From Isosphaeraceae bacterium EP7 (GTDB taxonomy: Bacteria; Planctomycetota; Planctomycetia; Isosphaerales; Isosphaeraceae), in contig CP151667.1 of assembly GCA_038400315.1 (NCBI GenBank), positions 1,127,174 through 1,191,173 of the forward strand: 64,000 nucleotides of DNA, in the 5' to 3' direction. Below, piece by piece: positions 45,401 to 64,000 of this stretch (positions are counted from its first letter, which is position 1; the number at the start of each line of letters is the position of its first letter). The position numbers and the translations under genes are program-made. Below the pieces are notes generated by a model. The model did no database searches, had not been told where the DNA came from, and was given only the letters and a program-made list of their open reading frames with translations.

Positions 45401-48400
45401 ACCGGCGGGGCGGGTGGTGCCGGCGGCGCAGGGGCCGGTAACGGCGGCCTGACGGCGAACATCGGCAATGCCGATGGCGGCGTGGGCGGAGACGGGGGCA
45501 ACGGAGGCAATGGAGGCAGTGCGGCGGGGGGCGCGATCTGGAACTCCACAGGAGGTTTCCTCGTCTCGGTCTTCAGCACGATCTCGGATGGAACCTCGCA
45601 GGGCCAGAGCACCCCGGCCGCTATCCCGCTGCTCGACATCTTCGCCGTGAGCATCAACGTCACCTCCATGTCCGACAACTCCGCCAGCGGAGGAGCGGGC
45701 GGTGCGGGGGGAACCGGCGGAGGCAATGGCGGGCTCGCGGTCGTTGGCCGTGCCCGCGGCGGCCTTGGCGGCGATGGTGGCAACGGTGGAAACGGCGGCC
45801 AGGCACGCGGCGGTGCGATCGAGAATACGGGCGACCGCTTCCAGTCGTACGCCTTCAGCGCGGTCAATCCTCAGGTGGCCGGGTCGCCCGCGGCGACGAA
45901 GATCTTCCTCCATTTCCCGACGATCAACCTTCGCGAGCTTTCGGGCAACACCGCCAACGGCGGTGCGGGGGGGATCGGCGGCGCAGGGGGCGGCAACGGC
46001 GGAACCTATCTGACGACCGTGGGGGGTGCCCCGGTGGGCCTGCCGGTCAACCTGGAAACACCCGGCGGTCTCGGGGGCAACGGAGGTAACGGGGGTAACG
46101 GCGGCGCGGCGTATGGCGGTGCCGTTGACAACTCAGGAGACGGCTTCCTGATCGCCGACTTCAGCACCGTGAGGACCTTCAGCTCGGCTGGTTCGTCCTC
46201 CCCCATCGGGCCCGAGATTTTTGTCGACACCCTCAACATCCAGCTCACCCTGCTCTCGGACAACTCGGCCAACGGCGGGGCGGGCGGTAAGGGAGGCAAC
46301 GGAGGGGGCAACGCAGGGGCCAGCCTCGGGACGGCAAACGCCGATGGCGGGGTCGGAGGCGACGGTGGCAATGGGGGCAGCGGCGGCGGGGCTTTCGGCG
46401 GTGCCATCAACAACGCCGGCGACGGCCTCATCGTGGCGACCTTCAGTGCCCTGGCCGTTTCTCCCGCCGCAGGGCCAGGACAGGGGATTTCCCTGGTCAA
46501 CGGCAATGCGACGCTCCGCATTCTCTCCGGCGACCGCGCCAATGGCGGCGCCGGTGGCATGGGCGGCGACGGCGGCGGTAACGCCGGCATCGGAGACGCC
46601 GACGGCGGGATCGGCGGCGATGGCGGCGATGGCGGCAACGGCGGAGAAGCACGCGGCGGCGCCATCGAGAACAACGGCCAAAGCCGCAACGATGGCCAGC
46701 GCGAAACCACGGCCGACGGGGTCGTCATCGCCTCGTTCAGCTCCGTTGTCCTCGTCGTCTCCGACGGCCTGGTCGTCGCCGGTAAGGTGGACGGCACGCT
46801 GAACACGCCCTTCTTCAACGTCACGGCCAACTCGTTGAATCTCAACATCACCAACCTGGTGAACGACAGCGCCAACGGCGGCGCCGGAGGAGCCGGCGGC
46901 CTGGGCGGCGGCAATGGCGGCCAGAACTTCGGCCTGGGGCAGGTGCTCGGCGGGACCGGCGGTTCCGGGGGAGCTGGAGGCAACGGCGGCGCCGCATTCG
47001 GCGGAGCCATCGATAACACCGGCAACGGGTTCGTCGTCGCGACCTTCAGCACGCTCACCAATGCCGTGCCGACCGAATACATCGGCGTGGCAAATGTCCT
47101 CCCTCCCTCGATTAACCAGAGGGTGAACCTGACGGTCAACCTCGTCCAGCTCACCGATGACTCCGCCAACGGCGGGAAGGGGGGCGCTGGAGGGCTCGGC
47201 GGCGGCAACGGGGGGTTCACCCTCGGTGGCAATGCCAACGGAGGCGCGGGCGGTGCCGGCGGCGACGGCGGCGACGGCGGTAATGGGCAGGGCGGTGCCA
47301 TCAACAATATCCCCTCGATTGATACCACGCCCCTGGCGCTCGTCGTCGGAGACGTCATCACCGCGTCCGCCAGCGGGAACCCGGTCAACCCGTTCTATCC
47401 CAAGGTCTTCAACATCAACGCCAAGTTCGACTCGCTTTCACGCGACAAGGCCACGGGAGGCAACGGGGGACTGGGCGGCAATGGCGGCGGCAACGGAGGG
47501 GTCACCTTCGGGGGCAACGCCAACGGATCCCTGGGGGGCAACGGAGGCAACGGCGGTGACGGCGGATCGGCACTCGGAGGCGCGATCGCCAACTCTGCGG
47601 CCCGATTCCTCCTGCCGGCGTACTACACCCTGACCGGCGACAGTGCCACGGCCGGCAACGGCGCCAACGGCGGCAATGCAGGGGGCAACGGTGCGCCAAC
47701 GCCCAACGGAGGGAATAACACCCCGGGAATCGGCGGCAACGGCGGCAGCGGCGGCAATGGCGGGAGCGCGCAAGGCGGGGCCCTCTACAACCAGGGTGCC
47801 AACTTCACCGTCGGGACCAAGACCAACTTCACCGATGACAAGGCGACCGGCGGAAACGGAGGCGCAGGCGGTAACGGCGGGATCGTCGCCTTCCGGACGA
47901 GCAGCACAGGGGCCGGCGGCGCCGGCGGCGATGGCGGCTTCGCGGTCGGCGGGGCCATCGCCAACTTCGGCGACGGCTTCACCCTCGTCGGGCCGCACGC
48001 CTTCAACTCCGACACGGCCAGCGGCGGCAACGGCGGCGCGGGGGGCAACAGCGGTCTCGCGCCGAACTACATGGCCAATGGTGGGAACGGCGGCAACGGC
48101 GGGGGCGCCTCTGGAGGCGCGATCATCAACACCGGCCTGTCCTTCTCCGCCTCCAACGTCAGCTTCTTCCTCGATTCGGCCACCGGAGGCAACGCTGGGG
48201 CCGGGGGCAAGGGGAGCGGCGCGGGGGTCGGCGGCAATGGGGGCAACGGCGGCGACGCCCTCGGAGGCGCCATCGCCAACGCGGGATCGATGACGCTCTC
48301 CACCGGCTCCATCTCCTTCACGAGCGCCACAGGCGGAAGCGGCGGAAACGGCTGGGCGGGGGGCAACGGCGGGACCGCATCCGGCGGCGGGATCTATTCC

Positions 48401-49354: not shown

Positions 49355-49411
49355 ATGAATACTCTGATCCGCGACGTCAAATCGCAATCAATGCCCGTTC
49401 AAGATATCTAG
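49355..49411 (+). CDS. Possible 18-codon leader ORF with near-perfect ribosome binding site
   Basis: An ATG preceded by AAAGGAGG (spacing eight) opens an 18-codon ORF (M-N-T-L-I-R-D-V-K-S and eight more) that stops at TAG 49409. The surrounding ~49240-49430 is clearly lower in GC than the rest of the window. It lies 384 bases before the synthase start. It could be a leader peptide, a short independent peptide or a truncated gene start. No homologue was recognised. Confidence 0.35.
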   Translation: MNTLIRDVKSQSMPVQDI

Positions 49412-49782
49412 TTAATCAGGTTTCATGACGACGTCGAGTCTGCTCCCCCAGGCACGAAGTCGACCCGCGGGAGCCTGGAGCCTAGGCCCATGACGGTCAC
49501 CCTCCCGACTCGCATCGCCGCCACGGACGGGACGGCATTACCCGATCGGTTTCCGTCCGGCGTGGGCCGGGGCGATGCCCGCCTTTCCACTCGCAGGTCG
49601 CCGGCAGGGACCGACGGCCGGCCGACTCCGACACGCCCCTGACCAAAACGCTTGGAATGATTCTGATCCTGCCCGCATCTCATGCCGGGCGGCCGAGGTC
49701 GAGGCTCCGCGCCCCGACTCCGGCCATGCCGTCGAGATTCATCCCGAGACGAGTGGTCGGTCACCCCGGCCGCGACGTGCAG

Positions 49783-49790
49783 AAGGAGGG
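49783..49790 (+). promoter_or_regulatory. Ribosome binding site selecting a TTG start
   Basis: AAGGAGGG lies four bases before TTG (49795-49797), and the first synthase domain begins two to four residues later. Upstream in-frame ATGs at 49657 and 49726 lack such a site and would add ~46 or ~23 Arg/Pro-rich residues. Confidence 0.6.
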
Positions 49791-49794
49791 GACC

Positions 49795-52700
49795 TTGGGC
49801 GATCCGGCAGACTTCGACCTCATCGTGCTGACGCCCCCGGGCTCGCCCGATCCGTCGCTCGCCATCGCGGGGAGCCGGGCCGGCGCGATCGGCGTCCTCA
49901 ACCTGGAGTTCGCCGACGATCCCGACGCCGCCTTGGCGGCGCTCGCCCGACTCGGTCGCCATGGCCGCGGACGCATCGGCGTGCTCCTGGACGGGGCGGA
50001 CGAGATCTTGCTTGCCGCCGTCCTCGGCCTGGCGCCCCCCGGCCTGCACGCACTGCTGCTGGCCGGCACGCCCCCCGGTCGACTCCGCCGGGCGATCGGG
50101 CTCATCCATCAGGCCGGGCGGAAAGCTTACATCGTCGTTTTCGGGGTGGACGAGGCACAGGCGGCCGAGGCCGCAGGCGCCGACGCGTTGGTCGCCAAGG
50201 GGCATGAGGCGGGCGGATGGGTCGGCGAGGAGACCACCTTCGTCCTGCTCCAATCCCTGCTCTCACGCCCGACGATCCCCGTCTGGGCTCATGGGGGCGT
50301 GGGGCCCCGCACCGCGGCCGCCTGCCGGGCGGCGGGCGCCGCCGGTGCGGTGCTCGACAGCCAGCTCCTCCTGGCCCGCGAGTCGCCCCTGCCCGAGGCC
50401 GTCCGGGCGCGCATCGGGTCGATGGACGGCAGCGAGACGGCCTGCCTCGGATCGGGACTCGGGGCCGCCTTCCGCTCCTACTCTCGCCCCGATCTGGGTC
50501 CCGCCAACGACCTCAGGCGCCTCGAGGCCGAGGCTCTCGTCGCCGAACGGCCCCGCGAGGCCGTCCGCCTCGCCTGGCGAGAGGTGGTCACCCGTCAGGT
50601 TGACTGGCGACGAACGTCGACCTCGCTCCTCGCCATCGGTCAGGACGCCACATTCGCCGCGGGGCTTGCGTCTCGCTACAAGACCGTCGGCGGCATCGTC
50701 GATGCGATACGTCGGGCATCGGCCGAGTTCGGGGCCGCGACCGAGGGGAGCGGTCCACTGGCCGAAGGGTCGCCGCTGGCCCGCTCCCACGGCACCAGAT
50801 ACCCCATCGTGCAGGGCCCGATGACCCGGGTCAGCGACCGTGCGGAATTCGCCGCCGCGGTCGCCGAGTCGGGCGCCCTGCCCTTCCTGGCCTTGGCCTT
50901 GATGCGGGCCCCCGGGGCCAGGACGCTGCTCGAGGCCACCGGCCGGCTCCTGGGCAACAGGCCCTGGGGAGTGGGGGTCCTCGGATTCGTCCCGCCCGAG
51001 CTGCGCGCCGAGCAGCTCGAGGTCCTCCGCGCCTTCCGGCCTCCCTTCGCCCTGATCGCGGGGGGGCGGCCCGATCAGTCCCGGGTTCTGGAAGGCGATG
51101 GAATCGCTACATATTTGCATGTCCCGTCGCCGGGTCTGCTCCGGATGTTCCTCCAGGAGGGGGCCTCGAGGTTCGTGTTCGAAGGCCGCGAATGCGGCGG
51201 CCACGTCGGCCCGAGGACCAGCTTCGTGCTCTGGGAGAGCATGATCGAGGTCCTGCTGGCTCACCTGGACGCGACGCCCGCTGCCGACCCCACAGCCTGC
51301 CACGTCCTGTTTGCCGGCGGCGTGCATGACGGGCTCTCAGCGGCGATGGCGGCCGCGATGGCCGCGCCGCTGGTCGACCGAGGGGTCAAGATCGGCGTCC
51401 TGATGGGCACGGCCTACCTGTTCACCGACGAGGCGGTGCGCACCGGCGCGATCGTCGACCGCTTTCAGAAGGCGGCCGTCGCGTGCGGCCGGACCGTACT
51501 CCTGGAGAGCGGGCCGGGCCACGCGACCCGCTGCGTCCCCTCTCCGTTCGTGGACGACTTCGCGGGGGAGAAACGCCGCCTGATCCGCGAGGCACTCCCC
51601 TCCGACGAGCTGCGGCACCGCCTGGAAGTGCTGAATATCGGCCGTCTGCGGGTCGCTTCCAAGGGGCTCGACCGCGACACGAGCGACCGGGGAGCTCCGG
51701 GCGAGTCGAAGCTCGTCGACGTGTCCGACGACGACCAGTGGTCGCGTGGGATGTATATGATCGGCCAGATTGCCTCCCTCAGAGCCGCGGTTTGCTCGAT
51801 GGATGAACTCCACCGCGACGTCTCCGAGGGGGGGGCACGGATCCTCGGGTCTGCGGGCGCGAACGCGGTCGATCTAGGTCCGCAGTCGCCGCCTCCTTGC
51901 GCCGTGGCCATCGTCGGCATGGCATGCATCCTCCCGGGCTCGCCCGACCTGAAATCGTACTGGTCGAATATCCTGGGCAAGGTCGACGCGATCACCGAGG
52001 TCCCCGCCGACCGCTGGGACTGGAGGCAGTACTACGACGCCGACCGATCGGCGCCCGACAAGATCTACTCACGCTGGGGCGGGTTCATCGACGAGGTTGC
52101 ATTTGATCCGGCGACCTACGGGATCCCTCCCAGCTCGCTCGCCTCGATCGAGCCGTTCCAGCTCCTGGCCCTGGCCGTGGTCCGGTCGGCTCTGGACGAC
52201 GCCGGTTACCTGGACCGGCCGTTCTGCCGCGAGCGGACATCGGTGATCCTCGGGGCGGGTGGTGGCGGCGCCGACCTGACGGCCGGATATATGTTCCGAT
52301 CCAGCCTGCCCGCCTTCTTCGGCGGCGACGCGTCGGCCGTCACCGAGAACCTGGGCAGTCACCTCCCGGGTTGGACCGAGGACTCATTCCCTGGCCTGCT
52401 CATGAACGTGGCCGCGGGCCGGGTGGCGAATCGTTTCGACCTCGGCGGGGTGAATTACACCGTCGACGCCGCCTGCGCCTCGTCGCTGGCCGCCGTCTAT
52501 CTGGCGGTGCGCGACCTCGAGGCGCGCACCAGCGACGTGGTGGTGGTGGGCGGGATCGACGCCATTCAGAACCCGTTTTCATTCCTCTGCTTCAGCAAAA
52601 CCCAGGCACTCTCGCCGACCGGCCGATGCCGGACATTCGACGCGCAAGGCGACGGCATCGCGATCAGCGAGGGGTTTGCCGCAGTCATCCTCAAACGCCT

Positions 52701-55700
52701 CGACGACGCCGAGCGTGATGGTGACCAGATCTACGGCGTGATCCGGGGCGTGGGCGGGTCCAGCGACGGCCGCGACCGGAGCTTGACCGCCCCCAGGCCC
52801 GATGGGCAAGTCCGGGCGCTCCGCCGGGCCTATGCCCAGGCCGGGATCCCGCCCGCGTCGGTCCAGCTCGTCGAGGCCCACGGGACCGGCACAGTGGCAG
52901 GAGACCAGGCCGAGGTTCAGGCCCTCTCCGCGTTCTTCGGCAAGGCGGGTGGGAGTCGTCAGGGGTGCGCCGTCGGATCGGTCAAATCGATGATCGGCCA
53001 CACCAAGGCCACCGCCGGAGTCGCCGGCCTGATCAAGACGGCTCTGGCGCTGCATCACAAGGTCCTCCCGCCCACGCTCAACGTGACCTGCCCCAACCCG
53101 AGGTCGAACTTCCCCGAGAGCCCATTCTACGTGAACACCGAAGCACGCCCCTGGATCGACCCCGGAGGCCATCCCCGGCGGGCCGGCGTCAGCGCCTTCG
53201 GCTTCGGCGGCACGAACTTTCACATCGCCATGGAGGAGTACTCCGGCCACTACCTGGATGGGAACGCCGCTCCGGTCGACGTCTGGCCCGCAGAGCTTCT
53301 TGTCTGGCGAGGCGACTCGCGACGGGAGATCCTGGATTCCATCAAGGACCTGACAGGGCGCCTCGAGAAGGGAGCAAGGCCCGCGCTTGTCGACCTGGCG
53401 TTCACCGTGGCCCGGGCGGCGAACGCGGCCCAGGCGGGCCCGTTCAGCCTCGCCATCGTCGCGTCGTCGATCGACGAGCTCATCGCGAGGCTGCACCTCG
53501 CCGAGAGGGCCCTGGGGGACGGACCCGACCGATCACACCCGTCACGGGGGGTCTACTTCTCGGGGAAGCCCCTTTCTCAAGAGGGCATGGTCGCCTTCCT
53601 CTTCCCGGGGCAAGGATCGCAATATGTCGACATGGCCCGCGATGTGACGCTGGCCTTCGAGGCGGTCAGGCGCTGCTTCGATCGCGCCGACCGCGTACTC
53701 GCCGGCCAGCTCGATCGTCCGCTGAGTCGTTTGATCTTCCCGCCGCCGGTTTTCACCCCAGAGGATGAGCTCCGCCTGAAGGCCGAGCTGACCGAGACGA
53801 GCGTCGCCCAGCCCGCCCTTGGGGTGACCGATATTGCCTACTTAAGCTTGTTGCGTGAGTTCGGCGTCGAGCCCCAGATGGCCGCAGGTCACAGCTTCGG
53901 CGAATTCGTCGCCCTCCACGCCGCGGGTTGCTATGGCGAGGAGGAACTGCTTCATCTTGCCGCGGCGCGCGGGCGGTTCGTCAAGGAAGAGACGACCGAG
54001 GAGAGTGGCGCAATGGCCGCGGTCGACGCCCCGCCCGAGGCCTTGATGGAGTTGCTCTCCGACCCAGGTCTGACGCTGGCTAACCTCAACGCTCCCCTCC
54101 AGACGGTCCTCTCGGGATCGAAGAGCCGCATCGATGCCGCGGTCGCCTGGTGCGAGGGGCGAGAGATCCGGGCGCGGCTCCTCCCGGTCTCATGTGCCTT
54201 CCACTCCCCCCTGGTCGCGCCCGCGCAATCGAGGCTCGCCGAGTTCCTCCGGGAGATCCCGATCGCACCGCCCCGGATCCCGGTCTACTCGAACACGACG
54301 GCGGGCGTTTACCCGCAGGATCCAGGGGCCATCGCCGGCCTGCTTGGCGAGCACCTGGTCCGCCCTGTCGAGTTCGTCCGCGAGATCGAGGCCATGTACG
54401 AGGCTGGTGCCAGGATCTTCGTCGAGGTTGGCCCGCGAAACGTCCTGAGCGGACTCGTCGGCCGGATCCTCGGCGATCGCCCTCATCTCTGCTCACCCTT
54501 GGACGTCCCCGGCCGATCCGGGGTGCCACAACTCCTTCACGCGCTTGCCTCGCTCGTGGCGGAGGGGGTGCCGGTCCGACTCGGACGGCTCTTCGAAGGC
54601 CGGACGGCCCGGGCTCTGCACCTCGGGTCGCTCGACCAGGAGACGGGCCGGCCCAAGCTCACCCCGACAACCTGGATGGTCAGCGGTGGGAAGGCGAGAC
54701 CGGCGAATCCCAGGGCGGGTACGGCCGAACCGCCCACCTTGCCGCTGGCCATCCGGGTGGCGGACGGCCACCAGGCTACGCCCAGCCCCACCCGAGAAAA
54801 CCCGACGATCGTCGGCGAATCCTCTCCCCGTTCGGACCGAAATGGCGACGGAACCGGCAACGGCCACCCGTCGCCCGGAAAATCCGGATCCGCCGGCCGA
54901 AACGGTCACGTGGCCGCGACGCCGACGCCCGTCCCCCATCCGCACCAGGCCTTGTCCGCCAGAAACGGAGGGAGCATGACTCCAACGACCCGACCAAGTC
55001 CCAGGATCTCCGGGGAGGCGATCCCGCAGAACCGACTCGCCCCTTATCTGGCAAGTCCGCCTTTAGCGCCTACCCCGGGGCCGGCCGCGAACGGGCAGGG
55101 GACAACGGACATCGTTCGGCAATTTCAACAGGTGATGATGCGTTTCCTCCAGACCCAGGAAACGGTCATGCACGAGATTCTCACCTTCTTGGGAACCGGG
55201 GCAGCGGCCCTTCCCACCCCGAATGTCGACCATCGACCGGCGGGGGCGGGCGCCGACGGCAACGGATTCGCCCTCGATGCTCCTCCCGCGATGGAGCCCG
55301 TCCACGCTCCGCAACCGCAACCTCAATCGCACGGCGGGGCCTCTGCTCCGGCCGCACCCGCCGACATTCAGGCGACCTCACCGGTCGTGGCCGTGGCCCG
55401 CGTCCCTGTCCCTCCTCGGGAGGAGGCACCCGCACCTCCCCCACTCGTGCCGGGCCCGAAGGCGTATATGCCGCCCAGCCGGGCTCAGCTCACGCAGGAT
55501 CTGCTCGCGGTCGTCAGCGAGCGTACCGGCTATCCCGAGGAGATGCTCCTGCTGGAGTCGGACATGGAGGCCGAACTGGGGATCGACTCGATCAAACGAG
55601 TCGAGATCGCCGGCACGATCCTCCGCGCACTGAAGCTGCCAGCCGGGCAGTCTCCCGACGTCGAGAAGCTGACCGCCAGCCGGACCCTTCGTCAGGTGGT

Positions 55701-58371
55701 CGACACCCTGGTCTCGATCGTTGGTGATGTGCCAGGGCTTGCGACCTCGGCGTCATCGGGATCACCCGACCCCGTTGGGAAGGGGGGAGAAACCCGCCCT
55801 TTTGAAGGTGCGCGGACCGGTCACGGAATCGGTCGGTTCGCGCTCAACTCGACCCCCTCGCCCGCCGTCGGGCTCGCCGTCGGCCTGGCCCCCGACGGTC
55901 TCGTCGTCTTGGTAGACGACGAGACCGGTGTGGGACATGCCCTGGCCGCTCGTCTCAAGGGCGCGGGATACCGCGTCGTCCGGCTCGTCCGAGACATCGA
56001 CGCAACGCAAGGAAGCCCCCAATGCCTTGCGGGCGACCTCGGTCATCCCGAAGAGGTCGCCCGACTCGTCGAAGACCTTCGAGCCAACCACGGCACGCCG
56101 TCGGGCCTCATCTTCCTCTCTGCGTTGCGCGAGGAGGTATCGAAGGACGAAGATAACCTGATCGCATTGTTCCTCACGTCCCAGGCCCTACACGCCGATC
56201 TCGAGCGATCGGCGGCCTTGGGCGGCGCCGCAGTTCTGGCGGCCACACGGATGGGCGGAGCCTTCGCGACGGATCGCCCCGGCTCGACATTCGAGCCGAT
56301 TCATGGAGCCCTCGGCGGCTATCTTAAGTCCCTCTCCCAGGAATGGCCGACTGTCCAAGTCAAGTCCGTGGATGTCGGACGCGAAGCCCCCGAAGTCCTT
56401 GCGAATCAGTTCTTTGGCGAGTTGATGGCAGCCGACCACCTGGTCGAGGTCGGCTACCTCGACGGGACCCGTACCGTCCTCGAGCTGGTTCCTTCGCCTC
56501 TGCCGGCGAACCCCGTTGAACGCCTGCCGCTGGACGCCGACTCGGTGCTGCTCATCACCGGCGGGGCCCGGGGGATCACCTACCTGGCGGCCCTGAAGCT
56601 GGCCGAGGTCGCCCGCCCCACGCTCATCCTCGTCGGTCGGACTCCCGCGCCGGAAGGCCCCGAATCGCCCGAGACGGCAGGCCTGACCGATCCCCGGGCC
56701 CTGAAGTCGGCGATCATCGCTCAGCTCAAGCGCACCCATGAGTCGGTCACCCCCGTGATGGTCGAGGACCACTATCGGCACCTCCTCAATGGCCGCCAGA
56801 TCCGAGAGAATCTCGAACGGCTCCGCGGGACCGGTGCCCGCGTCGAGCTCCTCACCTGCGACGTCCGAGACCCCATCGCGTTTGGCATGCTCATCGACGA
56901 AGTCTATCGGGCACACGGGCGGATCGATGGGGTCATCCACGGCGCTGGCGTCATCGAAGACCGATTGGTCAAGTACAAGTCCCTCGATTCCTTCCGCCGT
57001 GTCGTCGAAACCAAGGTGAACGGCGCCAGGGTCTTGGGCGAGAAGCTCAGGCCGGCGTCGCTCCGCTTCCTCGCCTTCTTCAGCTCCGTGTCGGCGCGAT
57101 TCGGCAATCGTGGCCAGGCCGATTACGCCGCCGCGAGCGAGGTGCTCAACAAGCTCGCCCAGCAGCTCGACAGGACCTGGCCGGCCCGAGTCGTCTCGAT
57201 CAACTGGGGCCCCTGGCTGCAAACCGGGATGGTCTCCGCGGAAGTCCAACGTCAATTCGCCGAGCGTGGCGTGGCGCTCATCCCCCCCGAAGTCGGCTGC
57301 TCGATGCTCCTGGACGAGCTGACATCCGGGCGAAAGGGCGATGTCGAAATCCTGATCGGCGGCGACACGAGCACCGCCGCCGGGCCCGTCCCGAAACACC
57401 CTCTCCTCGCGGTCGCCGGCCCGTTCACACGAGATGCCGACGCCGTCCATCTCGTCAGGCCACTCGATCTGGAGATTGATCATTATCTCAATCATCATTG
57501 CATTGATGGTCAGGCGGTCTTCCCATTCGCGATGGCGATGGAGCTGGCCTCCGAGGTCGCCGAGGCGGGATGGCCCGGCCTGAAGGTCGTGGAGCTTCGG
57601 AACATCCGCCTGATGAAGGGGATCGTGGTCGACGGCCCCGGCCGGGCGGTTCGCGTCACCGCTCGCCCTCGAAACGAAACGAACCCGAGCCATGCCGACC
57701 TCCATCCGGAGGTGACCCTTGAGGTGAGCATCGCTCATCCGGACGACCCGATGCGGGTCCACTATCGGATGGAGGTCATTCTTGCCCACGAGGCCGGAGG
57801 GCCAGGGCAGTGGGGGTCGCCAAGACTTCCGGGCCCGCTCGCACCGATCGAGGGTGTCGGGCAGAAGTCCCTGAGCGTGGGCGAAGCCTACCGGGATCTC
57901 CTCTTCCACGGACCTCTTTTCCAGGGGATTGCCTCGATCGAGGCCATTGGTACCAACGGAGCGCGTGCCCTGTTCCGACAGTCGTCTCCGGCGGACTGCC
58001 TTCGAGGCGGGCCAGCGCAAGGCTGGGTCATCGACCCGGTGCTCGTTGACTGTGCCTTCCAGATGCAGGTCCTCTGGGCTCGCCTGCACTGGGACGTCAC
58101 CCAGCTCCCCGCCGGGGTTCAGAGTTATCGCCAGTTCGGCCCGTCGGGTGTCGAAGGCCGAGGTACCGTGCGACACGAGCTGCGTGTCCGGCCCGAGAGC
58201 CAGGACCCGATGTGCTTCTGCGACCACACCTTCCTGGACCCCGAAGGCCGAGTCTTCGCGGTGATGACCGGGGTCGAAGGCAACGGAAGCCGTGCCCTCA
58301 ATCGCTTGGCGGGGGCCGACCGCCAACGAGGTCTTCTGACCGCAGCAAATCGTCCCGGAGAGCGACCATGA
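49795..58371 (+). CDS. Multidomain lipid/polyketide synthase: NMO-NMO-KS-AT-ACP-KR-DH
   Basis: A 2858-residue type I synthase (numbering from TTG 49795). Two FMN-type nitronate-monooxygenase/PfaD-like barrels: ~1-250 with E-A-G-G-W142-V-G, and ~330-640 with E-C-G-G-H470-V-G. KS ~702-1140 with triad C894, H1029, H1069. AT ~1266-1560 with S1367 in G-H-S-F-G-E. A Pro/Asn-rich linker contains a helix near 1773. One ACP has S1932 in G-I-D-S-I-K-R-V-E-I, the PUFA-synthase type. KR ~2030-2480 has T-G-G-A-R-G-I and Y2444. DH ~2545-2850 has H2568 in H-x3-G-x4-P and a D-x3-Q. Builds a fatty-acyl or polyketide chain with reduction and dehydration; the product is unknown. An ATG at 49657 is the alternative start. 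It overlaps the next gene by ATGA. Confidence 0.9.
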   Translation: MGDPADFDLIVLTPPGSPDPSLAIAGSRAGAIGVLNLEFADDPDAALAALARLGRHGRGRIGVLLDGADEILLAAVLGLAPPGLHALLLAGTPPGRLRRAIGLIHQAGRKAYIVVFGVDEAQAAEAAGADALVAKGHEAGGWVGEETTFVLLQSLLSRPTIPVWAHGGVGPRTAAACRAAGAAGAVLDSQLLLARESPLPEAVRARIGSMDGSETACLGSGLGAAFRSYSRPDLGPANDLRRLEAEALVAERPREAVRLAWREVVTRQVDWRRTSTSLLAIGQDATFAAGLASRYKTVGGIVDAIRRASAEFGAATEGSGPLAEGSPLARSHGTRYPIVQGPMTRVSDRAEFAAAVAESGALPFLALALMRAPGARTLLEATGRLLGNRPWGVGVLGFVPPELRAEQLEVLRAFRPPFALIAGGRPDQSRVLEGDGIATYLHVPSPGLLRMFLQEGASRFVFEGRECGGHVGPRTSFVLWESMIEVLLAHLDATPAADPTACHVLFAGGVHDGLSAAMAAAMAAPLVDRGVKIGVLMGTAYLFTDEAVRTGAIVDRFQKAAVACGRTVLLESGPGHATRCVPSPFVDDFAGEKRRLIREALPSDELRHRLEVLNIGRLRVASKGLDRDTSDRGAPGESKLVDVSDDDQWSRGMYMIGQIASLRAAVCSMDELHRDVSEGGARILGSAGANAVDLGPQSPPPCAVAIVGMACILPGSPDLKSYWSNILGKVDAITEVPADRWDWRQYYDADRSAPDKIYSRWGGFIDEVAFDPATYGIPPSSLASIEPFQLLALAVVRSALDDAGYLDRPFCRERTSVILGAGGGGADLTAGYMFRSSLPAFFGGDASAVTENLGSHLPGWTEDSFPGLLMNVAAGRVANRFDLGGVNYTVDAACASSLAAVYLAVRDLEARTSDVVVVGGIDAIQNPFSFLCFSKTQALSPTGRCRTFDAQGDGIAISEGFAAVILKRLDDAERDGDQIYGVIRGVGGSSDGRDRSLTAPRPDGQVRALRRAYAQAGIPPASVQLVEAHGTGTVAGDQAEVQALSAFFGKAGGSRQGCAVGSVKSMIGHTKATAGVAGLIKTALALHHKVLPPTLNVTCPNPRSNFPESPFYVNTEARPWIDPGGHPRRAGVSAFGFGGTNFHIAMEEYSGHYLDGNAAPVDVWPAELLVWRGDSRREILDSIKDLTGRLEKGARPALVDLAFTVARAANAAQAGPFSLAIVASSIDELIARLHLAERALGDGPDRSHPSRGVYFSGKPLSQEGMVAFLFPGQGSQYVDMARDVTLAFEAVRRCFDRADRVLAGQLDRPLSRLIFPPPVFTPEDELRLKAELTETSVAQPALGVTDIAYLSLLREFGVEPQMAAGHSFGEFVALHAAGCYGEEELLHLAAARGRFVKEETTEESGAMAAVDAPPEALMELLSDPGLTLANLNAPLQTVLSGSKSRIDAAVAWCEGREIRARLLPVSCAFHSPLVAPAQSRLAEFLREIPIAPPRIPVYSNTTAGVYPQDPGAIAGLLGEHLVRPVEFVREIEAMYEAGARIFVEVGPRNVLSGLVGRILGDRPHLCSPLDVPGRSGVPQLLHALASLVAEGVPVRLGRLFEGRTARALHLGSLDQETGRPKLTPTTWMVSGGKARPANPRAGTAEPPTLPLAIRVADGHQATPSPTRENPTIVGESSPRSDRNGDGTGNGHPSPGKSGSAGRNGHVAATPTPVPHPHQALSARNGGSMTPTTRPSPRISGEAIPQNRLAPYLASPPLAPTPGPAANGQGTTDIVRQFQQVMMRFLQTQETVMHEILTFLGTGAAALPTPNVDHRPAGAGADGNGFALDAPPAMEPVHAPQPQPQSHGGASAPAAPADIQATSPVVAVARVPVPPREEAPAPPPLVPGPKAYMPPSRAQLTQDLLAVVSERTGYPEEMLLLESDMEAELGIDSIKRVEIAGTILRALKLPAGQSPDVEKLTASRTLRQVVDTLVSIVGDVPGLATSASSGSPDPVGKGGETRPFEGARTGHGIGRFALNSTPSPAVGLAVGLAPDGLVVLVDDETGVGHALAARLKGAGYRVVRLVRDIDATQGSPQCLAGDLGHPEEVARLVEDLRANHGTPSGLIFLSALREEVSKDEDNLIALFLTSQALHADLERSAALGGAAVLAATRMGGAFATDRPGSTFEPIHGALGGYLKSLSQEWPTVQVKSVDVGREAPEVLANQFFGELMAADHLVEVGYLDGTRTVLELVPSPLPANPVERLPLDADSVLLITGGARGITYLAALKLAEVARPTLILVGRTPAPEGPESPETAGLTDPRALKSAIIAQLKRTHESVTPVMVEDHYRHLLNGRQIRENLERLRGTGARVELLTCDVRDPIAFGMLIDEVYRAHGRIDGVIHGAGVIEDRLVKYKSLDSFRRVVETKVNGARVLGEKLRPASLRFLAFFSSVSARFGNRGQADYAAASEVLNKLAQQLDRTWPARVVSINWGPWLQTGMVSAEVQRQFAERGVALIPPEVGCSMLLDELTSGRKGDVEILIGGDTSTAAGPVPKHPLLAVAGPFTRDADAVHLVRPLDLEIDHYLNHHCIDGQAVFPFAMAMELASEVAEAGWPGLKVVELRNIRLMKGIVVDGPGRAVRVTARPRNETNPSHADLHPEVTLEVSIAHPDDPMRVHYRMEVILAHEAGGPGQWGSPRLPGPLAPIEGVGQKSLSVGEAYRDLLFHGPLFQGIASIEAIGTNGARALFRQSSPADCLRGGPAQGWVIDPVLVDCAFQMQVLWARLHWDVTQLPAGVQSYRQFGPSGVEGRGTVRHELRVRPESQDPMCFCDHTFLDPEGRVFAVMTGVEGNGSRALNRLAGADRQRGLLTAANRPGERP

Positions 58372-61300
58372 CCGCCCCCCACGGATTTCCGAATGGCGAA
58401 GACAGGTCGGTCACCTACCGTCCCGGTAACCCACCAGCGACGGGCCAGCGCCCGCGTCGCAAAGGGGTCGCCATCATCGGGATGTCGTGCCTATTCCCCG
58501 GCGCCCCCGACGTCGACGCTTACTGGCGGAACATCCTCGGCAAGGTCGACTCGGTCACGGCGCCGCCTCCCGAGGCTCGCGAGACGGCCCTGTATTACGA
58601 GCCCAATTCGGCCGAGCCCGATCGTGTCTACTGCCAGCGCGGTGGCTACCTCGGGGCGCTGTCGACTTTCGATCCCCTGGCCTTCGGCGTCCCGCCGGTC
58701 TCCGTCGGCGGCGAGCCCGATCAGTGGCTGTCGCTCAGGCTCGCCCGCGAGGCGATGGCGGATGCGGGCTGCCTTGATCTCCCCGAATCGGTCCGGCGGC
58801 GGACCTCGGTGATCCTCGGCAAGGGGACGTACCTCAACGCCGGCAATGCGATGGCCATCCAGCATGGGCTGGTCGTCAGCCAGACCCTTGAGATCCTCGG
58901 CGCACTCCACCCCGAATACACCGGCGCGGAGATCGAGGCGATTCGACGGGAGTTGAAGCGGGCCCTGCCGCCGATCGGGCCCGAGACGGTTGCAGGGCTC
59001 ATCCCCAATATTATCGTCGGCCGGATCGCCAATCGGCTCGACCTGATGGGCCCTAGCTATACGGTCGACGCCGCCTGTGCCTCGTCGCTGATCGCCGTCC
59101 AGCAGGCGATGCGCGACCTCGCCAGCGGCGACTGCGACCTGGCAATCGCCGGTGGCTCGCAGATCTGGATCCCGATGCCGACTCTCAGCATCTTCTGCCA
59201 GCTCGGGGCACTCTCCCGCCGCCAGCAGATCCGACCCTTCGACAAGGACGCCGATGGAACGCTGCTCGGCGAGGGGATCGGCATGGTCGTCCTGAAGCGG
59301 ATCGAGGACGCCGAGCGTGACGGCGACCGGATCTATGCCGTCGTCCGTGGGGTCGGGGTCGCCAGCGACGGCCGGGGCATGAGCGTCATGGCGCCCCGCG
59401 TGCAGGGCGAGGAACTCGCGCTGAGACGTGCGTATGAGGAGGCCGGCGTCTCGCCCGATTCGGTCGGGCTGATCGAGGCCCACGGGACTGGCACGCCGGT
59501 CGGAGACGCCACCGAGGTGCAGGCCCTGACCAGGGTCTTCGGCCAACGGATCGGCGAGATCCCCCGTTGCGCCATCGGGTCGGTCAAGTCGATGATCAGC
59601 CACACAATCCCCGCGGCCGGGGTCGCCGGGATCATCAAGGTGGCCCTCTCGCTCTACCACAAGGTCCTGCCGCCGACCCTGAACTGCGAGGCGCCCAACC
59701 CCAGGCTCGAGCTGGAAAAGACCCCCTTCTACATCAACACCGAGGCTCGACCCTGGGCACACGGCGGCCGGGAACCCAGGCGGGCCGGGGTCAACTCGTT
59801 CGGCTTCGGCGGGATCAATGCCCACGCCATCCTGGAGGAACACGCACCCGCAGGCCGGGTGGCCTTGCAGGCGGGCTTTGAGGACGACACGCGGCGAGCG
59901 GAGGCCCGCGCCGACCATCGGCCGGAGTGGGAATGCGAGGTCTGTATCCTCGGGGCCGAATCGCCGGCGAAGCTCCTGGCAGAGGCCCGCCGTCTCGTCG
60001 CGGCGCTCGATGCGGTCGATTCGGATGAGCCCATCCGCATCAAGGATCTTGCGGCGACCTTGAATCGAGATCTTATGACTTCGGGATCCAGCTCCCCCTT
60101 CCGGCTGGCCGTCGTGGCGGCGTCGGCCGCCGACCTGAAGGCCAAGCTGGGGAAGGCCGCGAAGAAGCTCGGCTCGCCGGGATGCCTCCAGATTCGGGAC
60201 GTCTCGGGGATTTATTACGCCGCCGAGCCGCTCGGGCGGTCGGGCAAGCTGGCGATCCTCTTCCCCGGAGAGGGTGCTCAATATCCCAATATGCTCGCCG
60301 ATCTCTGCCTGCACTTCCCCGAAGTGCAGGCGTGCTTCGATGAGATTGACCAAATCTATTATGATCACCCGCGCGGATATGTGCCGAGTGACCACATCTT
60401 CCCGAGATCATCGCCGATCCCGAGCGATGGCGGTGGGGTCGCCGAACGCCTCTGGCAGATTGCTGGCGCGGTCGAGGCGGTCCTGACGGCCAATCGGGCC
60501 ATGCTCACGCTGATGGAACGGCTCGGACTGCGGCCCGACGTGATCCTCGGCCACAGCACCGGGGAGTACTCGGCCATCCGTGCGTCCGGGATCTTCGACC
60601 CGGCGAGAGATAAGTTCTCCGAGCTGATCCTCACGTTCTTCCGGAATTACGAGGTCGCATCCGGGCCGGAACTCTCGACAGCCGTGTTGCTTGCGGTGGG
60701 TGCCGGGAGGCGGGAGGTCGAAGCAGTGGCCCGCGAGACCGGCGGCGAGATTTATGTGGCCATGGACAACTGCCCTCACCAGGCGGTCCTGGTGGGAGAG
60801 GCGGGAGCCGCGGCGCGAGCGGAGGAGATTCTGCGACGTGACGGGCTGATCTTTGAACGACTCAAATTTGACCGGGCGTATCACACGCCCCTCTTCATCC
60901 CGTATGCGGCGCACCTCAAACAGATCTTCCAGGACGCCCCCATAGTCGCTCCGACGACCCCGATTTACTCGTGCACATCGGTATCTCCCTATCCTGACGA
61001 CCCCGCCGCGATTCGCAAGCTGATGCTGGATCACTGGCTGGAGCCGGTCGAGTTCCGGCGGACCGTCGAGAGGCTGCACGACGACGGGGTGAGACTCTTC
61101 GTCGAGGTCGGGCCGAGGGGCAACCTCACGGCGTTTGTCGAGGACATCCTCCGCGACAAGACCTTCTGCGCCATCCCTTCCAACGTCCAGCGCAGGTCGG
61201 GCATCGCCCAGCTCAATCACCTCGTCGCCATCCTCACCGTCCATGGGATCGACCTCGACCTGATGGCCCTCTCCCGGGATCGGTGCACTCGACGGATCGA

Positions 61301-63584
61301 TCTCGATCGCATCGCCGCGCATCCGACCCCGGGACGGCCATCGGGAGAGATGAAAATACGGACCGGATTCCCCTCGATGAGCCTTGGGACGGAGGCTGCC
61401 CGTAGGCTCAGGGCTGTCGCATCAGGCCCGATGCCGGGAGAAATGAGGTCGGAGATTGCCGTCGATGACACGATCGAATCGGGCGAGGCGGGCGATCTCG
61501 AAATCGAGCGTGACGAGGTCGATCCCGAGATCCAGGTCGTTTCGGATCAGGCCCCACGGTCCGAGCGGAATTCGACCCCCGGGGAACTCCAGGAGACGGC
61601 GCCGGGCGTCGGCTCGTCGGCGGTCGGTGTAGGCCCCGGCACCTCCATGGTCGAGGATTTTCTCCAGACCATGGAGCGCTTCCTTGCCGTCCAGGAGAGA
61701 GTCATGCAAAGCTGCCTCGATCCCGGTGCAGGTGCGGAACTCCGATCGGCGGACGACGCTCGGGGACAAACGATTCCCCTTAGCGATCCGTCTCAAGGAG
61801 GAGAGGCACCCTTCGCGCTCCTCGGATCCGTAGTGGCGTGGACGCCCGAGGTCGAGTTGACGGCCAGGCGCACGTTCGACCCGCTCTTCGACCTGGCCTT
61901 GCGCGATCATACGCTGGGGCGAGAGATTTCCAGGCATGACCCGGATCTGCTCGCACTCCCCGTGATGCCCCTGACAATGAGCATGGAGATCCTCGCCGAG
62001 GCCGCGGCCGCGCTGATGCCCGGGAGGACCGTGACCGGACTCCGCGACGTCCGCGCCCACCGCTGGATCGACTTCGGTGACGGCCCCCAGGAGCTTCAAG
62101 TGACGGCCCTTCGTCGCCCCGGTTTCGAAAACCGGGTCGATGTCCAATTGCGGAATCTGACCGAGGAAAGGCTCGCGGGATCACGGCCTCTCGGGCCTGT
62201 GGTCGAGGCTTCGGTCGTCGTTTCCGCGGCCTATCCGCATCCCGATCCCGAGATGCCGCCCGTCTCCCGTCCTCTCAATGGAAAAACGTCGGGGCTGAGG
62301 CCCGGACGCCTCTACGGGGAATCCATGTTTCACGGGCCGACCTGGCAGGGGGTCGAATCCCTGGATGAGATTGGAGAAGACGGCGCTGTCGCGACGCTGC
62401 GAGTATTGCCGCTCGACGCGTTGCACGGCGGGGCGGAACGCGGACGCTTCGTCCTCGACCCAATCGCCCTGGACGCCGCCGGCCAGGTGGTCGGGTTCTG
62501 GACGGCGGAGCGTCTCGACTCGGGGAAGGTCGTCTTCCCATTCCACCTGGAATCGTTGGAGGTGTTCGGGCCCCCCCGTGCAGCTGGCGAATCGCTCGTC
62601 TGCGTGGCTTCGATCGGACTGATCGGTGACCAACTTGTCCGAACCGACATCGAGATTGTCACGGCCGATGGACAACCCTGGATGCGATTGACCGGCTGGG
62701 AGGACAAACGATTCGAGCTCCCGGATGGCTTCGAGGCTCTGATGCGTCCTTCGCACGCCGAAATCAGCGAGCCCTGGGAAGGGCCCATCGCGGACCTCGC
62801 GCCTGGCATGCCCGTCGAATGCCGGCGACTCCGCGCGAAATTTTTATCGAACCACGAGTTCTGGAAGCGTATCTGGGCTCATCGAGTCTTGAGCCGATCC
62901 GAGCGCGAGGACTTCCGCTCGCTGAGGACGCCGCTCGTTCGACAGCTTGAATGGCTCGCGGGTCGGACCGCGGTCAAGGAAGCCGTGCGCCGACTGCTAC
63001 TGGATCACGAAAACCTCGACGTGAGGCTCGCCGATCTCGAGATCAAGCCCGACGAACGAGGACGTCCGATGGTCCTCGGCGCATGGGCGGATGAGGTCGC
63101 CGAGATGCCGGTCATCTCCATCTCCCACTCGGACGGTCTCGCGGTCGCGATCGCCGCCTTGCCGGATCCTGGAGGCGATCGTCCCCTGCGTCTGGGTATC
63201 GATGTCGAGTTCATCAAGCCTCGCCCCGAGGGGTTCCTCGACGTCGCGTTCGGCGGCGAGGAACTCGAGATGTTAAGGACCCGACCCCACTCCGAGCGGG
63301 ATGAGTGGGCCGTCCGGATGTGGTGCGCCAAGGAGGCCGTCGGCAAGGCGACGGGGGAGGGGCTCGGCTGGTCGACGCGCTCGACGGAAGTCGTGGGCAT
63401 CGATCCGGACGGAGGGATCGTCGAGGTAAGGCTCTCGGGCGAACTAACCTCGCGTCATCCCGACCTCAACGCAGCAGCCATCGCCGTGCGCACCATCTCC
63501 ATCGATCGTCTTGTCGTGGCGACGACCTTCGGCATCCCCTCCCACGTCGATGTGGCGGGCGAGCGGGCATCCATCGGCTCTTGA
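58368..63584 (+). CDS. Lipid/polyketide synthase KS-AT-DH-like with fused phosphopantetheinyl transferase
   Basis: A 1738-residue protein starting in ATGA overlap. KS ~34-470 with C237, H372 and H412 (the last in I-S-H-T instead of the usual I-G-H-T). AT ~625-960 with S730 in G-H-S-T-G-E-Y. An amphipathic helix at 1094-1120. A hotdog DH-like domain ~1165-1440 with D-H1181-T-L-G, lacking the standard H-x3-G-x4-P, but retaining a D-x3-Q. C-terminal Sfp-type phosphopantetheinyl transferase ~1500-1720 with I-S-H-S, G-I-D1612-V-E1614 and W1652-C-A-K-E-A-V-G-K. No ACP was seen, so it presumably acts on the ACPs of its neighbours and primes them itself (inference). The free ACP follows after 42 bases. 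Confidence 0.9.
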   Translation: MTAPHGFPNGEDRSVTYRPGNPPATGQRPRRKGVAIIGMSCLFPGAPDVDAYWRNILGKVDSVTAPPPEARETALYYEPNSAEPDRVYCQRGGYLGALSTFDPLAFGVPPVSVGGEPDQWLSLRLAREAMADAGCLDLPESVRRRTSVILGKGTYLNAGNAMAIQHGLVVSQTLEILGALHPEYTGAEIEAIRRELKRALPPIGPETVAGLIPNIIVGRIANRLDLMGPSYTVDAACASSLIAVQQAMRDLASGDCDLAIAGGSQIWIPMPTLSIFCQLGALSRRQQIRPFDKDADGTLLGEGIGMVVLKRIEDAERDGDRIYAVVRGVGVASDGRGMSVMAPRVQGEELALRRAYEEAGVSPDSVGLIEAHGTGTPVGDATEVQALTRVFGQRIGEIPRCAIGSVKSMISHTIPAAGVAGIIKVALSLYHKVLPPTLNCEAPNPRLELEKTPFYINTEARPWAHGGREPRRAGVNSFGFGGINAHAILEEHAPAGRVALQAGFEDDTRRAEARADHRPEWECEVCILGAESPAKLLAEARRLVAALDAVDSDEPIRIKDLAATLNRDLMTSGSSSPFRLAVVAASAADLKAKLGKAAKKLGSPGCLQIRDVSGIYYAAEPLGRSGKLAILFPGEGAQYPNMLADLCLHFPEVQACFDEIDQIYYDHPRGYVPSDHIFPRSSPIPSDGGGVAERLWQIAGAVEAVLTANRAMLTLMERLGLRPDVILGHSTGEYSAIRASGIFDPARDKFSELILTFFRNYEVASGPELSTAVLLAVGAGRREVEAVARETGGEIYVAMDNCPHQAVLVGEAGAAARAEEILRRDGLIFERLKFDRAYHTPLFIPYAAHLKQIFQDAPIVAPTTPIYSCTSVSPYPDDPAAIRKLMLDHWLEPVEFRRTVERLHDDGVRLFVEVGPRGNLTAFVEDILRDKTFCAIPSNVQRRSGIAQLNHLVAILTVHGIDLDLMALSRDRCTRRIDLDRIAAHPTPGRPSGEMKIRTGFPSMSLGTEAARRLRAVASGPMPGEMRSEIAVDDTIESGEAGDLEIERDEVDPEIQVVSDQAPRSERNSTPGELQETAPGVGSSAVGVGPGTSMVEDFLQTMERFLAVQERVMQSCLDPGAGAELRSADDARGQTIPLSDPSQGGEAPFALLGSVVAWTPEVELTARRTFDPLFDLALRDHTLGREISRHDPDLLALPVMPLTMSMEILAEAAAALMPGRTVTGLRDVRAHRWIDFGDGPQELQVTALRRPGFENRVDVQLRNLTEERLAGSRPLGPVVEASVVVSAAYPHPDPEMPPVSRPLNGKTSGLRPGRLYGESMFHGPTWQGVESLDEIGEDGAVATLRVLPLDALHGGAERGRFVLDPIALDAAGQVVGFWTAERLDSGKVVFPFHLESLEVFGPPRAAGESLVCVASIGLIGDQLVRTDIEIVTADGQPWMRLTGWEDKRFELPDGFEALMRPSHAEISEPWEGPIADLAPGMPVECRRLRAKFLSNHEFWKRIWAHRVLSRSEREDFRSLRTPLVRQLEWLAGRTAVKEAVRRLLLDHENLDVRLADLEIKPDERGRPMVLGAWADEVAEMPVISISHSDGLAVAIAALPDPGGDRPLRLGIDVEFIKPRPEGFLDVAFGGEELEMLRTRPHSERDEWAVRMWCAKEAVGKATGEGLGWSTRSTEVVGIDPDGGIVEVRLSGELTSRHPDLNAAAIAVRTISIDRLVVATTFGIPSHVDVAGERASIGS

Positions 63585-63626
63585 ACGGCGTCCGACCGAT
63601 TCGACAAGGTCCCGGAGGTAGCGAAC

Positions 63627-63935
63627 ATGTTGGCGAATCATCAGCAAATCCAGGATGAACTGCTCGAGTTGATGACCCAGCTGGCGGGCGACTGGGAGTA
63701 CGACGGGGAGGTGAACGCGGGCACGCGACTGCTGCGCGACCTGGCCATGGAGTCGCTCGGCCTGGTGGTCCTCGGGACTTCAATCCAGGAGCGGTACGGA
63801 CGGCTGCCGTTCTCGGAATTCCTCGCCGAAGTCGGCCAGCGTCCCCTCGAGCAACGAGATGTAACCATCGGCGAACTCGTCGATTTCGTCTGCCAGCATC
63901 GCCGTCATGTGGCGGGCGAGGGGGTGCCGCGATGA
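63627..63935 (+). CDS. Free-standing acyl carrier protein
   Basis: A 102-residue protein whose helix-2 start D-L-A-M-E-S43-L matches the carrier-protein D-S-L site with Glu before Ser; S43 would carry phosphopantetheine. The rest fits a four-helix ACP ('LGTSIQERYGRLPFSEFL', 'TIGELVDFV'). The ATG has GGAGG upstream. It lies 42 bases after the synthase with fused PPTase, which may activate it, and overlaps the next gene by ATGA, so one mRNA is likely. Confidence 0.85.
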   Translation: MLANHQQIQDELLELMTQLAGDWEYDGEVNAGTRLLRDLAMESLGLVVLGTSIQERYGRLPFSEFLAEVGQRPLEQRDVTIGELVDFVCQHRRHVAGEGVPR

Positions 63936-64000
63936 GCAAGACCATCCTGGTCGGCCTCGACGGCGCGACCTTCACGGTGCTCGATCCCCTCATGGCAAAT
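63932..64000 (+). CDS. Type I phosphodiesterase/alkaline-phosphatase-family protein, N-terminal fragment
   Basis: Only 23 codons lie in the window. 'ILVGLDGATFTVLDPLM' matches the start of the type I phosphodiesterase/nucleotide pyrophosphatase branch of the alkaline phosphatase superfamily, where the D of G-L-D-G-A is a metal ligand. It begins in an ATGA overlap with the ACP gene and thus belongs to the synthase operon. A role in trimming or transferring a phospho-headgroup on the lipid product is inference. Confidence 0.65.
   Translation, partial: MSKTILVGLDGATFTVLDPLMAN

What the first reader, a model, noticed from the sequence alone, without database searches (positions are those of the whole stretch)
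49795..64000. Lipid megasynthase operon with tandem fused NMO barrels and a fused self-priming PPTase
In known PUFA synthases the PfaD-type reductase and the PfaE-type phosphopantetheinyl transferase are usually separate genes. Here two NMO-like barrels (one with His, one with Trp at the catalytic position) lead the first subunit, and a complete PPTase ends the second. With only one ACP per megasynthase plus a free ACP and a phosphodiesterase-family gene, this could make an undescribed secondary lipid or polyketide.
Basis: partly seen in the sequence, partly recalled or inferred. Interest (0 to 1): 0.75.

Follow-up and report, generated by a model that had tools for sequence, protein, structure and literature searches.

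The report
Ars-related glycolipid synthase operon, widespread
A planctomycete carries a two-protein long-chain lipid factory, followed by sugar-adding, methyl-adding and export genes; it looks unusual, but the same factory occurs in many bacterial phyla, is related to the enzymes that make the coating lipids of Azotobacter cysts, and its product is still unknown.

Summary
ORF1 (49657 or 49795 to 58371) is NMO1(Trp)-NMO2(His)-KS-AT-ACP-KR-DH. ORF2 (58368-63584) is KS-AT-DH-PPTase with intact PPTase motifs. A free ACP follows, then a phosphodiesterase-family gene that starts 69 bases before the window ends. The fusions are not unusual: at least 554 loci across many phyla encode relatives of the tandem barrels, and the characterised phenolic-lipid (Ars) type has both a tandem-barrel ArsA and a DH-PPTase ArsD. 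It is not a PUFA synthase: no FabA-type DH, barrels not PfaD-type, KS outside the PUFA/heterocyst-glycolipid clade. Beyond the window lies a co-directional operon of about 14 genes, conserved in part across phyla: ACP, PDE, alpha/beta hydrolase, SDR, two glycosyltransferases, two methyltransferases, a secreted repeat protein and a MacAB/DevBCA-like exporter. Best reading: an Ars-related iterative synthase makes a long acyl chain that is glycosylated and exported; the product is unknown. New here: the fused PPTase lost catalytic residues about six times while the domain stayed, and this genome has no free Sfp-type PPTase.

The parts
49657..58371 (+). ORF1, lipid megasynthase subunit 1 (2904 aa from ATG; the true start may be TTG 49795)
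49810..50763 (+). NMO1: FabK-like TIM barrel with Trp at the usual His position; probable partner barrel
50764..51756 (+). NMO2: FabK/PfaD-fold barrel with an invariant His (GRECGGHVGP); probable FMN enoyl reductase
51898..53256 (+). KS1, C-H-H complete
53587..54492 (+). AT1, GHSFGEF and AFHSPL (malonyl-AT-like)
55498..55707 (+). single integrated ACP, GIDSIKRVE
55864..57336 (+). KR (structural plus catalytic halves)
57397..58278 (+). DH1, PKS-type double hotdog with catalytic His and Asp
58368..63584 (+). ORF2, megasynthase subunit 2 (1738 aa), ATGA overlap with ORF1
58461..59849 (+). KS2, catalytic Cys kept; separate clade from KS1
60246..61259 (+). AT2, GHSTGEY and RAYHTPL
61887..62774 (+). 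DH2, PKS-type, conserved His and Asp
62820..63569 (+). fused Sfp-type PPTase, motifs intact
63627..63935 (+). free acyl carrier protein (no Pfam hit; same position and related sequence as the free ACP of relatives)
   Evidence: annotated as acyl carrier protein in the Streptomyces plasmid relative
63932..64000 (+). start of type I phosphodiesterase-family gene (PF01663), continues beyond the window

Best explanation
It is a two-subunit iterative type I fatty-acid/polyketide synthase, related to the phenolic-lipid FAS ArsA/ArsD, at the head of an operon that glycosylates and exports its product. Inferred mechanism: the ORF2 PPTase arms the ACPs; AT1 loads malonyl units; KS1 condenses; KR, DH1/DH2 and the FMN barrel NMO2 (paired with the His-less NMO1) reduce the chain to a long, mostly saturated acyl or hydroxyacyl product. 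KS2/AT2 of ORF2 take part in late elongation or transfer to the free ACP. The alpha/beta hydrolase and SDR release and modify it, two GT1-family enzymes add sugars, two methyltransferases methylate, and a HlyD/ABC/FtsX (MacAB/DevBCA-like) pump exports it to the envelope. Shown: gene order, domains, active-site residues, phylogeny. Inferred: chain length, product class, roles of PDE, AT2, KS2 and the secreted repeat protein.
For: Full operon outside the window: PDE, ABH, SDR, GT1, GT2, MT1, MT2, two proteins without Pfam match, HlyD, ABC ATPase, MacB/FtsX, ended by convergent genes. Free ACP, PDE, ABH, and often SDR, GTs and the repeat protein recur beside the synthase in Actinomycetota, Chloroflexota, Acidobacteriota, Desulfobacterota, Gammaproteobacteria, Brocadia and Planctomycetota. 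KS1 falls with all tandem-NMO KSs, Ars included, in one clade (98/96), outside the PUFA/hgl KSs. Beijerinckia and Methylosinus ars loci share ArsA architecture and DH-PPT; Methylosinus ars is followed by an ABC exporter and TolC. ArsA makes C23-C25 fatty acids (PMC4824345). DevBCA-HgdD exports heterocyst glycolipids (PMC6161253). MT2's PDB matches include a D-glucose O-methyltransferase and GT1's include CalG1 and oleandomycin glycosyltransferases.
Against: No product is known for any close relative. ArsD lacks the KS-AT of ORF2, so the known product cannot simply be carried over. GT and MT genes vary between relatives, and subtype B loci lack the PDE. GT and methyltransferase matches do not prove action on this lipid. 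The exporter could carry something else. The downstream loci were picked for having the PDE, so its conservation there is biased; 18-19 of the 30 genomes tested had a close homologue.
Confidence: 0.6

Rival explanations
1. It is a polyunsaturated fatty acid (Pfa) synthase variant.
For: ORF1 scores above the cut-off of NCBI's PfaA model TIGR02813 (1119.6 vs 1010.1 bits).
Against: The Beijerinckia ArsA also passes that model (1156.1). No FabA-type DH/isomerase in ORF1/ORF2, whereas the same genome's PUFA-type locus at C1:2.763-2.777 Mb has four FabA matches and three ACPs. One ACP only; barrels not PfaD-type; KS1 outside the PUFA-type KS clade.
Confidence: 0.08
2. It is a phenolic-lipid (Ars) synthase that feeds a type III PKS encoded elsewhere.
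For: Closest characterised synthase core; the genome has a type III PKS candidate at C1:253769.
Against: No type III PKS in the operon, and the place it holds in ars operons is taken by ACP/PDE/ABH/SDR/GT genes that travel with this synthase across phyla.
Confidence: 0.12
3. It makes a non-lipid polyene or macrolactone polyketide, glycosylated as an antibiotic-like metabolite.
For: PKS-type DHs, fused PPTase, EryCIII-type GTs, methyltransferases and a MacAB-type pump.
Against: Enoyl-reductase-type barrels fused at the N terminus, with His invariant in the second, point to full reduction; KS clade shared with Ars. Named enediyne KSs were not in the tree.
Confidence: 0.15

Closest known systems
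ArsA/ArsD type I FAS of phenolic-lipid synthesis (Azotobacter vinelandii; Beijerinckia pBIND02, Type P of Shulse and Allen 2011)
   Same: NMO-NMO-KS-AT-ACP-KR order of ArsA, His only in the second barrel, DH-PPT fusion in ArsD, same KS1 clade
   Different: ArsD lacks KS-AT; the Beijerinckia ArsA has two ACPs and no C-terminal DH; type III PKS genes instead of ACP/PDE/ABH/SDR/GT/MT
Secondary-lipid synthase with fused pfaDA and pfaBC-PPTase (Renibacterium, Type M; Aquimarina, Flavobacterium; PMC13291983)
   Same: Reported fusion pattern is the same; the PPTase carries the P1b' type motif (ISISH) given for Types M-T (PMC3098273)
   Different: No named Type M sequence was available here, so KS placement is untested; those reports do not describe the downstream export operon
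Streptomyces sp. NBC_00984 and NBC_01243 plasmid loci
   Same: NMO-NMO-KS-AT-ACP-KR, KS-AT-DH-PPT, ACP, alpha/beta hydrolase, glycosyltransferase, methyltransferase in one row
   Different: No PDE, SDR or DH1; long branches in the KS tree
Heterocyst glycolipid system (hgl plus DevBCA)
   Same: Type I lipid synthase with glycosylation and a MacAB-like exporter; works alike
   Different: Fischerella hgl-like KSs fall in the PUFA-side clade, not with the window; no fused NMO there
Thraustochytrid PUFA synthase ERb/ERc heterodimer (PMC13311796)
   Same: Two enoyl-reductase barrels that work as a pair
   Different: There the two lie on different subunits and are near identical; here they are in tandem and one has lost His

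Membership tests
PUFA (Pfa) synthase | FabA-type DH/isomerase domains | tested here: not met
   none in ORF1/ORF2; four matches in the genome's other locus
PUFA (Pfa) synthase | several tandem ACPs in PfaA | tested here: not met
   one PP-binding match
PUFA (Pfa) synthase | PfaD-type enoyl reductase | tested here: not met
   each barrel matches only FabK TIGR03151, far below its cut-off; no PfaD model at E<0.001
PUFA (Pfa) synthase | KS within the PUFA clade | tested here: not met
   KS1 in the tandem-NMO clade (98/96); the PUFA-type and hgl-type KSs form a separate clade (100/100)
Type P / Ars phenolic-lipid synthase | ArsA: NMO-NMO-KS-AT-ACP-KR | tested here: met
Type P / Ars phenolic-lipid synthase | ArsD: DH-PPT without KS-AT | tested here: not met
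   ORF2 has KS-AT in front
Type P / Ars phenolic-lipid synthase | linked type III PKS | tested here: not met
   none in the operon; one candidate 0.9 Mb away
Type M secondary-lipid synthase | fused pfaDA and pfaBC-PPTase | tested here: met
   definition from PMC13291983
Type M secondary-lipid synthase | PPTase P1b' motif hShxH, no P0 motif | tested here: met
   ISISH present; P0 not seen on inspection of the sequence
Type M secondary-lipid synthase | KS clade with Frankia/Renibacterium/S. avermitilis | not tested
   no named Type M sequence in hand
Heterocyst glycolipid synthase | KS within the hgl clade | tested here: not met
Enediyne PKSE | single KS-AT-ACP-KR-DH-PPT polypeptide (definition from general knowledge) | tested here: not met
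   two subunits, two KS, tandem NMO

The most novel reading that the evidence does not exclude
The operon makes an undescribed class of exported, possibly O-methylated glycolipid of very long chain, shared by at least seven bacterial phyla, and its synthase repeatedly turns catalytic domains into pseudo-domains (NMO1, KS2 of the paralog, PPTase) that are kept for structure.
Probability: 0.35. Interest if true: 0.75.

Novelty: new variant of a known kind. Interest (0 to 1): 0.5.

Why it matters
A lipid pathway conserved from Actinomycetota to anammox bacteria and cyanobacteria without a known product is a clear gap in bacterial envelope chemistry. Its relation to Ars gives a testable prediction of the chain. 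The repeated loss of PPTase catalysis with the domain retained makes a direct test possible of whether fused PPTases have a structural role, and Isosphaeraceae offer natural pairs with and without a free Sfp-type PPTase.

Tried and rejected
PUFA synthase (see membership). PfaD-type reductase. Hgl membership by KS. Searching the literature for a match to the whole operon found none among held papers. Two papers on ArsA/ArsD (PMC2242712, PMC1458882) are not held; ArsA/ArsD architecture was read from the Beijerinckia and Methylosinus plasmids instead. The unknown 722-aa protein had no Pfam or convincing PDB match and was not folded, since only window proteins and loci of certain tools may be sent. 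VIA-align listed the thraustochytrid ER pair for neither barrel; that says nothing either way. Two family scans failed on a wrong frame and one region call on length. A search for published Isosphaeraceae glycolipid data gave nothing relevant.

Full report
Observation. Six-frame reading and domain scans confirm the finding. ORF1 is NMO1-NMO2-KS-AT-ACP-KR-DH; ORF2 is KS-AT-DH-PPTase. ORF1 and ORF2 overlap as ATGA, a free ACP follows, and the next gene starts at about 63932 with a short overlap. The first barrel has Trp and the second His at the usual His position. The barrels were modelled with high confidence (pLDDT 86.8 for the tandem, 89.4 for NMO2 alone); NMO1 matches FabK with Z about 33 and NMO2 matches FabK and PfaD with Z about 25.

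Beyond the window. The window lies in a 7.2 Mb genome at C1:1127174-1191173. Its family is Isosphaeraceae: one family member, G030, carries its locus on a contig of 69542 bases, the same as the named Paludisphaera soli locus L038. Reading on, the operon continues without change of strand: PDE (PF01663), alpha/beta hydrolase, SDR, two EryCIII/UDPGT-type glycosyltransferases, two SAM methyltransferases, a 722-aa secreted protein with LYVGT-like repeats, a 239-aa hydrophobic protein, HlyD, ABC ATPase and MacB/FtsX permease. Two genes on the opposite strand (DUF1552, DUF1592 families) follow. Operon unity is inferred from spacing and strand; no transcripts were available.

Distribution. In 45 Isosphaeraceae genomes ORF2 homologues are common, and the full synthases read fall into two subtypes: A (window and four genomes of one genus, with DH1 and PDE) and B (the rest, without DH1 or PDE). 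The window's genome has one of each, plus a third, PUFA-type locus. In 392 sampled Planctomycetota genomes only nine matches, in eight genomes, span the tandem, so it is patchy within the phylum. NMO2 keeps His in 30 of 30 diverse relatives while NMO1 has it in 1 of 30.

Conserved neighbours. A close PDE homologue (40-68% identity) was found in 18-19 of 30 tandem-NMO genomes tested. In the loci read, the free ACP, PDE and ABH lie after ORF2 or nearby in almost all, with SDR, glycosyltransferases and the secreted repeat protein in many. These were chosen for the PDE, so only the other genes' presence is informative there. In Desulfobacula the repeat protein is joined to an alpha/beta hydrolase domain. 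Some ORF2 relatives (Herpetosiphonaceae, Caldilineae, Desulfobacula) have one or two ACPs between AT2 and DH2 that the window lacks.

Named relatives. On plasmids, Beijerinckia indica and Methylosinus carry ars operons whose ArsA is NMO-NMO-KS-AT-ACP-KR and whose ArsD is DH-PPT, with type III PKS genes between them. Beijerinckia is a Type P member in Shulse and Allen (PMC3098273). In Azotobacter, ArsA makes C23-C25 fatty acids and ArsD is the PPTase (PMC4824345). Two Streptomyces plasmids carry ORF1, ORF2, ACP, hydrolase, GT and MT in a row.

Phylogeny. In an 88-row KS tree all KS1 of this type of tandem-NMO protein, Ars included, form one clade (98/96). The hgl-like KSs of Fischerella and PUFA-type KSs lie in a separate clade (100/100). 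KS2 forms its own clade (100/99). In both KS1 and KS2 the window groups with one Isosphaeraceae genus and then with Solirubrobacteraceae and Micromonospora (100/99 and 100/100), which indicates joint inheritance of both subunits and transfer between phyla. No named enediyne or Type M KS was in the tree.

Pseudo-domains. KS2 keeps Cys in the window but is Ser in all five subtype-B rows of the tree, the window's own paralog included. The fused PPTase is intact in the window but in the four nearest orthologs SISH, GIDxE and CAKEA have become SIS[LM]D, GIH[AT]ES and CAKKA while the domain stays 41-46% identical. Parsimony on a KS2-AT2 tree gives six changes between intact and dead; the states were called by eye on motifs. 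By PF01648 search the window's genome has only an AcpS-like protein and the two fused PPTases, with no free Sfp-type enzyme, whereas every Isosphaeraceae genome with a dead fused domain has a candidate free one (frames of about 250-500 aa). Fisher p is 0.029 on 18 loci, without correction for kinship and with frame length as proxy, so this is suggestive only. It does support that the window's PPTase is in use.

What it does. The synthase has all parts for iterative full reduction and no FabA-type isomerase, so a long saturated or hydroxylated chain is likelier than a PUFA. Glycosyltransferases, methyltransferases and a MacAB/DevBCA-like pump in the same operon point to an exported glycolipid. 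Chain length, sugar, and the roles of the PDE, KS2/AT2 and the repeat protein are inference. PfaB, an AT of PUFA synthases, acts as terminal acyltransferase (PMC12895367), which is a possible but untested analogy for AT2.

Novelty. The fusions and the synthase class are known; the product and the conserved export operon have no description in the papers I could search. I rate it a new variant of a known kind.

Noticed in passing
L020-L023, L031, L028, L030, L118, L119, L125, L129, L153 (ORF2 C-termini): Fused PPTase domain kept but catalytic residues lost, about six independent times; genomes in this family with a dead copy also have a free Sfp-type PPTase candidate.
   Followed up: partly
L005, L025, L030, L031, L035 (KS2): KS2 of subtype B synthases, including the paralog in the window's own genome, has Ser instead of the catalytic Cys.
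   Followed up: partly
L004:13382-15550 (beyond the window): Secreted 722-aa protein with LYVGT-like repeats, no Pfam or convincing PDB match, conserved in this operon across phyla.
   Followed up: partly
window 49355-49411: 18-codon ORF (MNTLIRDVKSQSMPVQDI) with a perfect AAGGAGG site in the leader upstream of ORF1; possible leader peptide.
   Followed up: no
window 39455-49180: Giant 3241-aa Gly/Asn-rich repeat protein with an LEDRTL motif near the N terminus, upstream of the operon; no Pfam match.
   Followed up: no
L019 (G000:C1:2.763-2.777 Mb): Separate PUFA-type synthase with three ACPs and four FabA matches; no PPTase of its own was found in the genome beyond AcpS and the two fused ones.
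   Followed up: partly
L147:3290-15070 (Desulfobacula): 3927-aa protein with distant tandem NMO, two KS, AT, four ACP matches and KR on one chain.
   Followed up: no
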